Below are positions 50,801 to 59,800 of a DNA stretch of 64,000 nt, piece by piece. The position numbers and the translations under genes are program-made. The notes below the pieces were generated by a model, which did no database searches, was not told the origin of the DNA, and saw nothing but the letters and a program-made list of their open reading frames with translations. Numbering within the stretch: the stretch's first letter is position 1; each line of letters starts with the position of its first letter. The DNA comes from Polyodon spathula (lineage: Eukaryota; Chordata; Actinopteri; Acipenseriformes; Polyodontidae): assembly GCF_017654505.1 (NCBI RefSeq), contig NC_054572.1:4038914-4102913 (forward strand). The letters run 5' to 3'.

Positions 50801-53800
50801 TAAACCATACATACATACCAGCAATAAACCATATATACCAGCAATAAACCATACGTACCAGCAATAAACCATACGTACCAGCAATAAACCATACGTACCA
50901 GCAATAAACCATTCATACCAGCAATAAACCATACATACCAGCAATAAACCATACGTACCAGCAATAAACCATACATACCAGCAATAAACCATACATACCA
51001 GCAATAAATCATACATACCAGCAATAAACCATACATACCAGGCTTATCCAGTTCATTCAAATTAGACTCCCAGATATTATGTTTCATCTCTCCAGCAAGT
51101 ATTATTTATTCTCTTTCATTTTGGATTCTGCTTCACCTTGGAGGACTCTCTGCATTTCCCTGCAATTCCCTAGCTGTCACGCAGCAAAACGCAAAAAATA
51201 GATTTCGATTCTATTTATTTCATGTCACTCCAGCGCCACCCTGGTGTCACTTCCGCAGTGCCTGTGGTGTTGCCAGTGGTGTGAAAGATACTTTTCAAAA
51301 CTCTAGGTTCTATTCATTTTGTCACATCGCATCTGGTGTGTAGCAAGCTTTAAGTTTAACTGATGGCTGCATGCAACCAAATAAATATTACATATATTGA
51401 TTCTGATATCTATCTATCTATCTATCTATATATATATATATATATATATATATATATATATATATATATATATAGATAGATAGATAGATAGATAGATAGA
51501 TAGATAGATAGATAGATAGATAGATAGAGATAGATATAGATATAGATATAGATATAGATATATAGATAGGTAGATAGATAGATAGATATAGATAACTCCC
51601 ATGAAAACAGGAAAACTCAATTGCTACCCTGAAAGATGCAGACATCACATTGGCTGAACCTGTTGCCCAAACCCTCCCTCCTCTTTGTCCCAGGTACTCT
51701 GAGCCCAGCCCCCCAGCCCCAGTCTTCCACAGACACGTTAAGAGTGGGAATGTCTTCGGAATGGTGCGGGAATCCTCAACCAAAGACCCTTTTAGAACCA
51801 GAGAAATCAATTAGCAGAAGCAAGGTAACTGACCAATGAAATCAATGAGCAGAAGCAAGGTAACTGACCAATGAAATCAATGAGCAGAAGCAAGGTAACT
51901 GACCAATGAAATCAATGAGCAGAAGCAAGGTAACTGACCAATGAAATCAATGAGCAGAAGCAAGGTAACTGACCAATGAAATCAATGCGCAGAAGCAAGG
52001 TAACTGTGTTGACTTCTCATTGAACTCAGTAGATCCGGAACAGTGAAAAGATGTAAAAGAAAAGGTACTTAATGGTGTCATTTATTTTTTTATTTTTCAG
52101 AGTTTAAAATTTGGAACTTCAAAACTGGGTAAGTTAAGTGCAAACTTGTTTTAGTTTTTTCATTGTTAATTCATGGCGTCTGTGCTTACTTCCTGAAAAT
52201 ATTCCTTCTGATCTGTATTTAATCTACAGCTTTAATCTGCAAGGTAATGTTATTAAATACACGTGGAGTAGCACCTAACAGCATACATGTTAATAAGCAT
52301 GTGAGGCAAGGAAGGCAGATTGATTTTATGAGAGCGCTGGTATCATCATGCTGTATGTCCTGACACTGCAGTTTGTTGTAGTAATACTGCAGGGTCGTGC
52401 CACAGCATTGGTCTATAGCAGTGTAACCAGTATTGTAGGACGGCAGTGCCCTGCTGCAGGCAGGCTGTGTAATGAGTCTTGTAGGGCGGCAGTGCCCTGC
52501 TGCAGGCAGGCTGTGTAATGAGTCTTGTAGGGCGGCAGTGCCCTGCTGCAGGCAGGCTGTGTAATGAGTCTTGTAGGGCGGCAGTGCCCTGCTGCAGGCA
52601 GGCTGTGTAATGAGTCTTGTAGGACGGCAGTGCCCTGCTGCAAACAGGCTGTGTAAAGAGTCTTGTAGGGCGGCAGTGCCCTGCTGCATTCAGGCTGTGT
52701 AATGAGTCTTGTAGGGCGGCAGTGCCCTGCTGCAGGCAGGCTGTGTAATGAGTCTTGTAGGGCGGCAGTGCCCTGCTGCAGGCAGGCTGTGTAATGAGTC
52801 TTGTAGGGCGGCAGTGCCCTGCTGCAGGCAGGCTGTGTAATGGCCTGTGATGGAAACATAAGTTCTGGTGATGAATCTTCCTCCCGACCTGTGAGGGCGC
52901 TAAAGAACGAGAGGAGAAGTATCTGGAAGAGCTGGCCTGACAGTTCATTTCCTGGGTCAGGGAAGTTGGTCAGCCTGGAAAGAAGCAAGACTCTGTTGTA
53001 AGACCGTATTGATTTGAAAGGTAAACGAGAGGCAGCTGCAGGTAATAAGGCAGCTAAAACCGTTCACCTAGATATCATGCGGGATTACATATAGGGGCCA
53101 GGGTAATGATGATCTTTTCCTTCGTTTGGGTAATGTGAGGTGAGAAGGACTGAGAGAGGAGCTCTCAGAGTGTATTACGTGTTGTGTGTTGTCTTTGTTT
53201 GTTTATAATTGTCTGTCTTTTTCACACCACTAGACAGTTAACGCACACCTCCGGGGCTTTCGCCACATAAAGCACTATCCGGAGCACCACTGCACAGAGC
53301 ACCTGCATGTTTGAATATCACCCAGGACTGGTGACCGTGCCTTTGTTTGTGTGTGAGACTGTATTGTGTTCTTCACCATCCCCTCGCTTTACACATTGTT
53401 GTGTACTGCCGGGGATTTATTATTTGACAGTCGCCAGACCTGGAAACAGCACAAATAAACACTTGTTCACTGAATCACTGTTGTCTGTTCATCACTCCTG
53501 CACCGCATCACCGCTACACCTGTTCCCCTTACCAACCACTTTGCCACATGGCCCAACAATAGATTTCTTCTGTTTTTTTTCTCAGAGTCTCCACCTCCAT
53601 TGACTCCACCTCTACCTAGAAGAACACCAGAGTCGTTTGTGCTGGCCAGTGAGTAAACAAAGACCTGGTTTCATTCCCACGCTGTTACTCTTGAGATGCT
53701 AAGAATGTTAGTAATTAGACAACAGGAATATTCATACATTTAGCTTTTAGGATTGCATCTATGGCTTCACAACATAAGATACTTAACTCATATGCAAGGG

Positions 53801-56800: not shown

Positions 56801-59800
56801 TTCATCTAGACAAGGCGGGGAAGTCATAAAAAGGCCAACAAAATGCTTGGATATATAATGAAGTGTTGAATTTAAATCAAGGGAAGTAATGTTAAAACTT
56901 TACAATTCATCAGTAAGACCTGATCTAAAATCTAGTGTCACCTCACTGCAAAAAAAGGATATTGCTGCTCTAGAAAGAGTGCAAATAATAAAATAACTGA
57001 ATCTATTCAGTCTTGAACAAAGAAGACTATGCAGCGATCTGATTCAAGTATTCAAAACTCTAAAAGGTATTGACAATGTTGCCCAAGAGACTTTTTCGAC
57101 CTGAAAAAAGAAACAAACACCAGGGGTCACTAATGAAGATTTGATAAGGGGCATTCAGAACAGAAAAAGGGAGGCACTTTTTTTACAGAGAATTGTGGGA
57201 GTCTGGAACCAACTCCTCAGTAATGTTGTTGAAGCAGACACCCTGGGATCCTTCAAGAAGCTGATGAGATTCTGGGAACAATAAGCTACTAACAACCAAA
57301 CAAGCAAGATGGGCTGAATGGCCTCCTCTCGTTTGTAACCTTGCTTATGTTCTTATGTTCTTACAATGCTCAGCTTGCTGTATATAATCAGTTTACTGTG
57401 TTGCAGCAATTGTAGTGCCGTTTGCAAAAAGAAAACCTCAGTTACTTACAGATGTTAAATTTATCTTTCAGAGTTTAAAAATGAAATGTTCAAAACTGGG
57501 TAAGTTCATGAAAACTTTATTATTATTATTATTATTATTTATTATTATTATTATTATTATTATTATTATTATTATTATTATTATTATTATTATTTTACAA
57601 CCAAAATAATTTGATGCAACTTAATTTGAAAGAAGACTTCTGCTGTCATAGAAGTCATGGTTTTACAGAGATGCAACTACACCCTGTCTCCATCAAGGGG
57701 GCAGTGTTGCACTCATTGGGTGCTCATTCTGAACATGCATACACAGAGGAACCCTGACAAAGCTTTCAGAGCTGTGCAATGCAATCTACATGATAATGTG
57801 TAGCAGGTTACAGATACTGCAGTGCAATTCCTTTCACAGAGCCTCCATGTGTCTTAGTAACTGTGGGATATGTGTCCTTAAAGGGCTGAAAATTCCTATT
57901 GGTGATTGGTTGGCCGGGAGACTAGATAAGGTGACACCGCACTAGAACCGGGCAGAGTGGATATAGGATAGAACTGGTGGTGTTAAGCTGTACTATTTTG
58001 CTAATAAAAATGTCATTCTTTTTGAACTGCGATTGGCTTTCCTGGAGTTATTATTCTAAATCAATCAGCTTCTGAACAGCCTTATTCTTAGAAGTTTTTT
58101 TTCTTAAATCTGTGCACCACAATTCAGAGACAGAAGAGTAACTGCATGCTTTTCCTTCAGTGCCCTTTTCTGTTGCCCCTGTACCTACCCCTCCCAGCAC
58201 AGCATCTGAATGGGTTCTCAGAGGGAATGGTAAGTAATGATGTGTAAAATAGTTGAACTGTATATATGTGTAACGTTGCAGCGTGGTGAGTTTCTAGTTG
58301 TCTTAGTTATCACTAGTCACATGGTCAGCGCAAGCCTGGTCTTGATCCTCCATTAAAATATAAAGAAGCTCAACACCAGTGGAATCACTCAGAACTGGAG
58401 TGACAGACCTACAGAGCAGAGCCCAGTGATGGTTGCACGGCTCATGTAAACAGTTTGAAAAGCCATTAAAATGACACCTGAAGCTACTTGTTCATTTTGT
58501 ATCTTTTCTCAGGTGAACAACTACCTGCAGATAACAGACCCCCCAGCTCAGCCATGGAGCCAGTCCAGCCAGATGAGAAGTCAGGTGCAAAACTGTCACT
58601 GTCCAGCTTCGCAAGGTCTAAGGTAATGAGTCATGAATGAGCCATGTTTCCAAACTCCCCGAAACAGCTTTGAAAATGATGCCCAGCGTGATTAATAATG
58701 GTTCCCTTTTTACAAAAAGTGACAGAGAGAAGGTTATTGATTTAGTGGCATCACATCTCTGGTCATATCAGTGTGCAGTTCCAACTGCCTGTCTCAATGC
58801 ATTTAAAATGGTCAATCACAATTTTAAGGAAGACTTACTTAATACACTGAGGAAACTGACATGTTTGTCTCCTTGTCTTTTATTACAGTATGATCTTTGC
58901 ACTATTACCACCAGCATTTTTGTTTCCAATTTGTCGGATTAGTCTGGCTGCACATGAAAAACTGTACAGACTGTTGCCTGCTTAAACTTTAGTGCATGGA
59001 ATTTAAAACTGAAAGGAAGGCAAATATAAAGCGGAACTGAGAATGCTGTTAAGAGCTTGTTTTCCTTCTACTGTGTGAGTTAAGTCACAAAGCCAGGGGA
59101 GGTGGGAGTGTCCGAAGCAGGATTCTTATGGGTTAGTGAGGAGTTTAGGATATCCCTAACACCCCCTAGCAATACCCTATAATGACAATGAAATACAGCA
59201 GTCACTTCTCAAATGTGCTCTCTGCATCCTGCCTTCAGTTTTCAGACTGCCCACTGATTCCAGACTTCATTAGGTTTTGATTAAATGTTAGTTTTCTCCT
59301 GCTCTACGGTCCCCCCACTGCTGCACCTGTAGCATCATTCTGCATTCAGAACTGTCCACAGCATTGGGAGCCTGGCTACCACTCAGAGACCTGCTTTTGC
59401 AATTTCTCATTCTCATCCCTGTTTCTTTTCCTCTCTACAGAGCATGAAGTTTCTAAAAAATGTGAAAAAGAGTAAGTTTGTCTTATAAATGTTTTCAATA
59501 GCAGGCAAAAGTATCTACTGTAGCTTTAATTTAATCAAATTCATTCTTTTTTTTTTTTTTCCCCACAGCAAAGAATGCAACTTCAGCAGCAAATGCAATC
59601 GAATCTGCCCCATCAAACCACACAAGCTCCAAGTCTAACTTCGGTATGTACTATGAACTATGACAACTTTCACTGGCTGAGCTGGCTGAAAGGGTAAAGG
59701 TGTTCAACAGTTTTTACAACTGCACTGTCTTTATAAAGGTTTACTGTAGTGAAGCCATGCATGGGAAATCAGTGTGAAGTAAGGTACTGAAGCATCATCA

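What the first reader, a model, noticed from the sequence alone, without database searches (positions are those of the whole stretch)
51694..58229. Amplified three-exon cassette in PTPN22 multiplies the SH3-binding proline motif
Seen: exons R (131 nt), S (28 nt) and P (63 nt) occur as R-a S-a P-a, R-b S-b P-b, R-c S-c, with every splice site intact. One cassette is 222 nt, exactly 74 codons, and phase 1 at both ends, so copy number can change without breaking frame. The predicted protein has P1 plus two identical PPLPRRTPESFVL ligands. Known: PTPN22 P1 binds the Csk SH3 domain and this contact tunes antigen-receptor signalling. Inference: this lineage or individual has a PTPN22 with greater valency for Csk-type SH3 partners, possibly polymorphic in copy number.
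Basis: partly seen in the sequence, partly recalled or inferred. Interest (0 to 1): 0.85.

Follow-up and report, generated by a model that had tools for sequence, protein, structure and literature searches.

The report
Repeated exon cassettes in paddlefish PTPN22
An immune-signalling phosphatase gene of the American paddlefish carries a tandem set of small exons for its docking tail, kept nearly identical by copying within the gene, but the number of docking motifs is the usual three for ray-finned fishes.

Summary
All eight cassette exons lie in the stated interval with GT-AG ends, the cassette is 222 nt and phase 1-1, and the tail stays open to the stop. From P1 on it is identical over 368 residues to an NCBI Polyodon spathula PTPN22-like model.

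Lungfish, caecilian and turtle models have two P-type ligands; 86 of 114 listed non-acipenseriform models have three. The window also has three live ones (P1, P-a, P-b); a fourth at 50.29 kb is dead. Total valency is ordinary.

The tandem array is unusual: three R-S pairs, with P-a/R-b and P-b/R-c identical over 504 bases. P-a and P-b share a change (PLPRRT) absent from the paddlefish paralogue and sterlet models. Both S-P introns carry the same LTR-like insertion; the paralogue's matching sites are empty. The two units were therefore homogenised within this copy, by unequal exchange or conversion; the arrangement itself is probably older, as a sterlet model shares it. R-a is also followed by five decoy splice donors, each leading to an early stop. 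Expression, Csk binding and population variation remain untested.

The parts
44622..45403 (+). large interdomain exon of PTPN22
   Evidence: open, AG/GT ends, matches P0001 residues 336-596 at 100%
46093..46176 (+). P1 exon, ...TPPPLPERTPESFVLLSQS; several in-frame acceptors are possible, and the NCBI model starts three residues (9 nt) earlier
   Evidence: matches PEP peptide 1jeg_B, E 3.8e-7
47433..47504 (+). spacer exon X between P1 and the next P
   Evidence: phase 1-1, in P0001
50286..50350 (+). dead P-type exon (other frame reads PPLPERSLKKLFLL): the acceptor AACAG|A of the paralogue reads AACAAG here, so the exon starts one base late and, entered in phase 1, meets a stop
   Evidence: alignment with copy B; stop; copy B exon is 66 nt and in frame
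51694..51824 (+). R-a exon
51803..52006 (+). 35-bp minisatellite (5.8 copies) built from the end of exon R and its donor; six identical AAG|GTAACT sites in all
52101..52128 (+). S-a exon; RSK|SLK at the R/S junction
52846..53548 (+). LTR-like insertion in the S-a/P-a intron, TG...CA ends, TGGCC on both sides
   Evidence: present here and at 54844-55545, absent before both P exons of copy B
53586..53648 (+). P-a exon, ESPPPLTPPLPRRTPESFVLA
53959..54089 (+). R-b exon, no 35-bp array
54191..54218 (+). S-b exon, identical to S-a
54844..55545 (+). second copy of the LTR-like insertion, in the S-b/P-b intron
55583..55645 (+). P-b exon, identical to P-a
55956..56086 (+). R-c exon, identical to R-b; followed by 2.9 copies of the 35-bp unit
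57472..57499 (+). S-c exon, the old distinct S (SLKMKCSKL)
   Evidence: 1 of 28 differences from its copy B counterpart, 6 of 28 from S-a/S-b
58161..58229 (+). V spacer exon, not a P exon
   Evidence: resembles by eye the segment after S in gar and bowfin models
58513..58622 (+). R'-like exon ending ...FARSK
59441..59471 (+). S'-like exon SMKFLKNVKK; its first Ser is the counterpart of human Ser751 (mapping recalled)
59569..59643 (+). first exon of the C-terminal homology (CTH) region
62586..62647 (+). last exon with stop, ...FGNRFSKPKGPRNLPASWV

Best explanation
This is the tail of PTPN22 copy A of Polyodon spathula. The tail is a series of short linear-motif exons: P carries a P1-type SH3 ligand, R+S a conserved EW-G segment ending in RSK|SLK. 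In sturgeons and paddlefishes an R-S-P block became tandem, probably before the two lineages split. Since then it has evolved in concert: within each gene copy, unequal exchange or gene conversion between the ~2-kb units keeps the cassettes alike and changes their number. Every cassette is phase 1-1, so each exchange leaves the reading frame whole. In copy A the last exchange took place after an LTR-like element had inserted in the S-P intron, and left two near-identical S-P-R units. P-a and P-b most likely act like P1, as docking sites for the SH3 domain of Csk or a similar partner, giving three live ligands, a common ray-finned number. Shown by sequence: exons, phases, homogenisation, shared insertion, dead exon. 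Inferred: age of the array, the exchange mechanism, expression of the full tail, Csk binding, any effect on signalling.
For: Exon model open to the stop; 368 residues from P1 on identical to the NCBI model. P-R block: P-a/R-b and P-b/R-c 0 of 504 differences, A against B 34 of 474 and 30 of 504, B1/B2 22 of 475; informative sites 19 for A-with-A and B-with-B, 0 and 0 for the two other pairings. Same LTR-like insertion before P-a and P-b, empty sites before both B P exons. P-a and P-b share AGA for GAA (R for E, two base changes) against both B P exons, which are identical to each other, and Glu stands there in the sterlet models. Copies A and B of Polyodon are sisters, support 100/98, as expected where rediploidisation followed speciation (PMC10199039, abstract and passages). 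Sterlet model P0002 has the same order from P-d to V. Copy B lacks R-a/S-a; the intron before its first P joins P-d/R-a-intron sequence to the 46-bp array. P1 and P2 of human LYP both bind CSK; P-a matches the PEP peptide, E 0.0013.
Against: No transcript that could be tied to an acipenseriform was found: the second protein search gave 6 hits, five named for other animals and one unnamed at 39% identity. The NCBI models are predictions, and the two Huso ones contain what looks like intron sequence and have only two P and two R. Because A and B of Polyodon are sisters and sterlet model P0004 has only two R, three R-S pairs could have arisen independently in sterlet and paddlefish. R-a has five further identical donors; using any of them gives VTDQ-stop, so an unknown share of transcripts may be truncated before P-a. 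P-a/P-b replace the Glu before the key Arg by Arg, so Csk affinity cannot be assumed. Divergence along the unit is uneven (10 of 1047 in the S-P intron against 0 of 504 in P-R, Fisher p 0.036; R-S intron tail 5 of 101), so one clean exchange does not explain everything. An assembly error in a near-identical tandem is not excluded without reads.
Confidence: 0.75

Rival explanations
1. Gain of valency: the paddlefish lineage amplified the cassette and so has a PTPN22 with more Csk sites than its relatives.
For: Three R modules against two in 101 of 114 listed non-acipenseriform models; two identical ligands plus P1. More P motifs than the lungfish, caecilian or turtle models and one of two bichir-family models, which have two.
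Against: 86 of 114 non-acipenseriform models also have three P motifs; copy B also has P1 plus two identical P exons; copy A has lost a further site.
Confidence: 0.12
2. Assembly artefact: two haplotypes or a collapsed and re-expanded repeat were laid end to end, and the true gene has R-a S-a P-a R-c S-c.
For: R-b/R-c and P-a/P-b with the intron between are identical over 504 bases, as haplotypes could be.
Against: The two units differ in 46-bp copy number (9.2 against 7.2) and at 10 of 1047 intron sites; copy B, on another contig, also has two P-R units; sterlet model P0002 shows three R-S pairs.
Confidence: 0.1
3. The extra exons are mostly unspliced or lead to truncated proteins; decoy donors after R-a make this copy a partial regulator or a decaying gene.
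For: Six equal donors after R-a, five of them leading to a stop at the fifth codon; one P exon already dead; P and R exons differ between copies A and B about as much as introns do (5 of 63 in P).
Against: The whole tail is open through 16 exons with AG/GT splice sites, and the CTH and P1 exons are kept.
Confidence: 0.12

Closest known systems
Human PTPN22 (LYP) P1 and P2 motifs
   Same: Two P1-type ligands in the tail, both bind CSK (PMC3554717, passages); an R-like segment lies between the two P motifs in the turtle model and, as recalled, in human.
   Different: Paddlefish copy A has P1 plus two identical P exons, three R-S pairs, and Arg for the Glu before the key Arg in P-a and P-b.
Three-motif PTPN22 tails of gar, bowfin and most listed teleosts
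   Same: Three PPLPxRTPESF-type motifs and two R-S segments.
Sterlet PTPN22 models (P0002, P0004)
   Same: P0002 has the same order: P-d, then R-S-P, R-S-P, R-S-V.
   Different: Sequence homogenised to its own type (STPPLPERT, SLKFRTSNL), and P-d counted as an exon; P0004 has fewer R and P units.
Concerted evolution of tandem repeats by unequal exchange or conversion
   Same: Copies inside a locus more alike than copies at matching places of a paralogue.
   Different: Here the unit is a 3-exon block inside one protein-coding gene; no such case was seen among the 10 papers listed of 351 (listing only).

Membership tests
PTPN22 | PEST-type PTP catalytic domain | tested here: met
   Typed catalytic pieces match PTPN12 (3.7e-65) and PTPN22 (2.8e-64) structures almost equally; P0001 carries PF00102. 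The domain alone does not separate the two.
PTPN22 | P1 motif of the PEP/LYP type | tested here: met
   P1 exon against 1jeg_B, E 3.8e-7, the only hit up to E 10
PTPN22 | C-terminal homology region at the end | tested here: met
   ...FGNRFSKPKGPRNLPASWV stop, alike in gar, lungfish and turtle models; judged by eye, Pfam gave no family for the tail
PTPN22 | orthology rather than PTPN12 | tested here: inconclusive
   Most named hits are PTPN22, two are named type 12 and one 99A-like (P0088, P0107, P0045); no PTPN12 was put in the tree
PTPN22 | haematopoietic expression | not testable with these tools
   no expression data
P1-type Csk SH3 ligand (P-a, P-b) | PPLPxR core with the Arg equivalent to R620 | tested here: met
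   PPLPRRTPESFVL aligned to the PEP peptide, E 0.0013
P1-type Csk SH3 ligand (P-a, P-b) | hydrophobic pair after SF (Ile626/Val627 in LYP) | tested here: met
   Val-Leu in place of Ile-Val; a conservative change, not identity
P1-type Csk SH3 ligand (P-a, P-b) | measured binding to Csk SH3 | not testable with these tools
   experiment needed
concertedly evolving tandem array | copies within a locus closer than copies at matching places of the paralogue | tested here: met
   19 informative sites against 0 and 0; shared insertion
concertedly evolving tandem array | copy number varies between individuals | not testable with these tools
   one assembly only

The most novel reading that the evidence does not exclude
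The acipenseriform PTPN22 tail is a copy-number rheostat: frame-neutral R-S-P units are gained and lost by unequal exchange, helped by a minisatellite made from exon R's own splice donor, and fish differ in the number of Csk or TRAF3 docking sites and RSKSLK sites, and in the share of transcripts cut short at decoy donors.
Probability: 0.12. Interest if true: 0.7.

Novelty: new variant of a known kind. Interest (0 to 1): 0.42.

Why it matters
The P1 motif is the site of the human autoimmunity variant R620W. A natural gene in which P1-type ligands are duplicated, lost and rewritten in concert offers a ready test of how many such sites the phosphatase needs and which residues of the motif may change. 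It also shows how phase-symmetric exons let unequal exchange remodel a signalling tail without breaking the frame.

Tried and rejected
Degenerate P exon at 58161-58229: first read as P-c, dropped once gar and bowfin models showed a like spacer after S. Greater total valency: dropped as the main reading after the motif count. Recent origin of the whole three-cassette array: not kept, because sterlet model P0002 has the same order and copy B shows what looks like a deletion of R-a/S-a; independent origin is not excluded. A single exchange inside the 35-bp repeat as the whole story: not kept, because divergence along the unit is uneven. The 57-58-bp duplication before the dead P exon as what killed it: dropped, because copy B carries the same duplication with a working acceptor. 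A Pfam scan of the tail gave no family. A plasmid search gave nothing, as expected; no tRNA. Papers: no held paper holds both paddlefish and PTPN22; of 10 holding sturgeon and PTPN22, 5 were listed and looked unrelated by title; none holds four of the five terms; the listings were seen and, apart from the papers cited, not opened. No library of RNA reads was searched. The third protein search was not used.
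Full report
WHAT IS THERE. The window is host DNA of the American paddlefish. The tail predicted from its exons matches an NCBI Polyodon spathula model named PTPN22-like isoform X2 (P0001) at 100% in the search. Checked letter by letter, the 368 residues from P1 on are contained in it unchanged, as is the large exon; the only difference is that the NCBI model starts the P1 exon three residues earlier. The window lies in a held assembly of 1.54 Gb at C39:4038914-4102913. 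PTPN22 runs on the plus strand from about 29.79 kb (first coding exon) to the stop at 62647. From the large exon at 44622 onward, 16 exons join in phase with AG acceptors and, but for the last, GT donors, and stay open to the stop. P-a and P-b are identical, and so are R-b/R-c and S-a/S-b.

CORRECTIONS TO THE ANATOMY. S-c is an old, separate exon: it differs from S-a and S-b at 6 of 28 bases but from its counterpart in the paralogue at 1 of 28, and sterlet model P0002 has the same peptide. A further P-type exon lies at about 50286-50350. In the paralogue it is a 66-nt, in-frame exon coding DSHTPPLPERSLKKLFVLTSKE, though the paralogue's model P0003 leaves it out; the two sterlet models carry the like of it. 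Here its acceptor reads AACAAG instead of AACAGA; entered in phase 1 it meets a stop at the twelfth codon, and P0001 leaves it out.

VALENCY. In the 120 best protein hits, 6 are named as acipenseriform. Of the other 114, the motif pattern used finds three P motifs in 86, two in 26, four in 1 and one in 1; R modules number two in 101, one in 12 and three in 1. The pattern is simple, the models are predictions, some species appear more than once, some entries are unnamed, and 601 hits passed but only 120 were listed. Lungfish (a 493-residue model), caecilian and turtle models have two P motifs; of two bichir-family models one has three and one two. The window's model has three P and three R, copy B's model three P and two R, the two sterlet models four and three, and three and two; both Huso models have two and two. 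So the window's total of ligands is ordinary; its R count is not.

THE PARALOGUE. A search of the assembly with the P exon found four places: two in the window and two on C25 near 10.885 Mb. The 40 kb there holds the same exon series: P1, X, P-d, P, R, S, P, R, S-c, V, and the end exons. Polyodon A and B are sisters with support 100/98, apart from the sterlet and Huso genes. This fits lineage-specific rediploidisation after a shared genome duplication (PMC10199039, abstract and passages); that A and B are ohnologues rather than another kind of duplicate is inferred. Copy B lacks R-a and S-a: its intron before the first P runs from sequence matching the P-d/R-a intron straight into the 46-bp array of the S-P intron. 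With the sterlet order, this makes a deletion in B more likely than an insertion in A. Independent gain in sterlet and paddlefish is not excluded.

CONCERTED EVOLUTION. Over the block from P to the end of R, the two A copies have 0 of 504 differences, the two B copies 22 of 475, and A against B 34 of 474 and 30 of 504. Of the informative sites 19 group A with A and B with B, and none support either other pairing. P-a and P-b share Arg for Glu, a change of two bases, absent from both B exons, which are themselves identical. An LTR-like insertion of about 702 bases, with TG...CA ends and TGGCC on both sides, sits at the same place before P-a and P-b and before neither B P exon. Most simply, it is younger than the A/B split, and the two A units were copied from one another after it went in. 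That it is an LTR rests on its ends and flanks alone. The unit alignment is 98.5% over 1584 bases. R-a is farther, 10 of 197 from R-b and R-c, near the A/B distance. The rate is uneven along the unit (10 of 1047 against 0 of 504, Fisher p 0.036), so conversion or more than one exchange is likely.

DECOY DONORS. R-a is followed by a 35-bp minisatellite made of the end of exon R with its donor (5.8 copies). Six identical AAG|GTAACT sites stand at steps of 35 nt; reading past the first gives VTDQ and a stop. R-c has two such further sites and copy B R1 has one; for copy B R2 the pattern found none, and for R-b none within 240 nt. R-b's upstream side equals R-c and its downstream side resembles R-a past the array, as an exchange inside this repeat would leave; the 5% divergence just downstream speaks for an older or repeated event. 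Any effect on splicing is untested.

FUNCTION. The P1 exon matches the Csk-binding PEP peptide at E 3.8e-7 and P-a at E 0.0013. Human P1 and P2 both bind CSK, P2 more weakly (PMC3554717, passages). PTPN22's ligand binds Csk SH3 with Kd about 0.8 uM (PMC8989918, passages). P-a and P-b keep the key Arg but change the Glu before it to Arg; the same PLPRRT occurs in the last P motif of three other fish models (P0014, P0016, P0017), so it is tolerated. Each R/S junction reads RSK|SLK, the context, as recalled, of human Ser751, a PKC site whose phosphorylation prolongs PTPN22 life (PMC11486154, passages); the window's model has three RSKSLK and one RSKSMK. That the extra sites work is inference.

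LIMITS. No transcript evidence was found: the second protein search gave 6 hits, none named acipenseriform. The assembly could still hide an error in a near-identical tandem, though the unit differences, copy B and the sterlet model speak against it. No sturgeon DNA was available, so the sterlet and Huso comparisons rest on predicted proteins.

VERDICT. A real and tidy case of intragenic concerted evolution in an immune phosphatase; the claim of raised ligand number is not upheld.

Noticed in passing
51803-52006: 35-bp minisatellite formed from the end of exon R-a and its splice donor, giving five extra identical donors that each lead to a stop at the fifth codon.
   Followed up: partly
50180-50350: A shifted acceptor has killed a P-type exon that looks intact in the paralogue on C25; a 57-58-bp tandem duplication just before it is present in both copies.
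   Followed up: yes
52846-53548 and 54844-55545: LTR-like insertion with TGGCC repeats at the same place in both S-P introns; its copy number in the genome was asked for but did not complete.
   Followed up: partly
60675-62044: 32-bp minisatellite of 43 copies in the last intron, with long chance open frames (up to 351 aa).
   Followed up: no
56160-56696: LINE reverse transcriptase piece (PF00078) in the R-c/S-c intron; the paralogue's intron begins with like sequence. Another LINE RT lies at 12203-13150 on the minus strand.
   Followed up: partly
30949-31587: Sleeping Beauty/Tc1-like transposase remnant (PF25787, PF01498) inside an early intron of PTPN22.
   Followed up: no
21764-22372 (minus): Open frame with an immunoglobulin V-set domain (PF07686) upstream of PTPN22, perhaps a neighbouring immune receptor.
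   Followed up: no
proteins P0005, P0006: The two Huso huso PTPN22 models contain a stretch (KIIVFLSHPAIDFFCLFLFSE) that looks like translated intron before a P exon, so their cassette counts are unsafe.
   Followed up: partly
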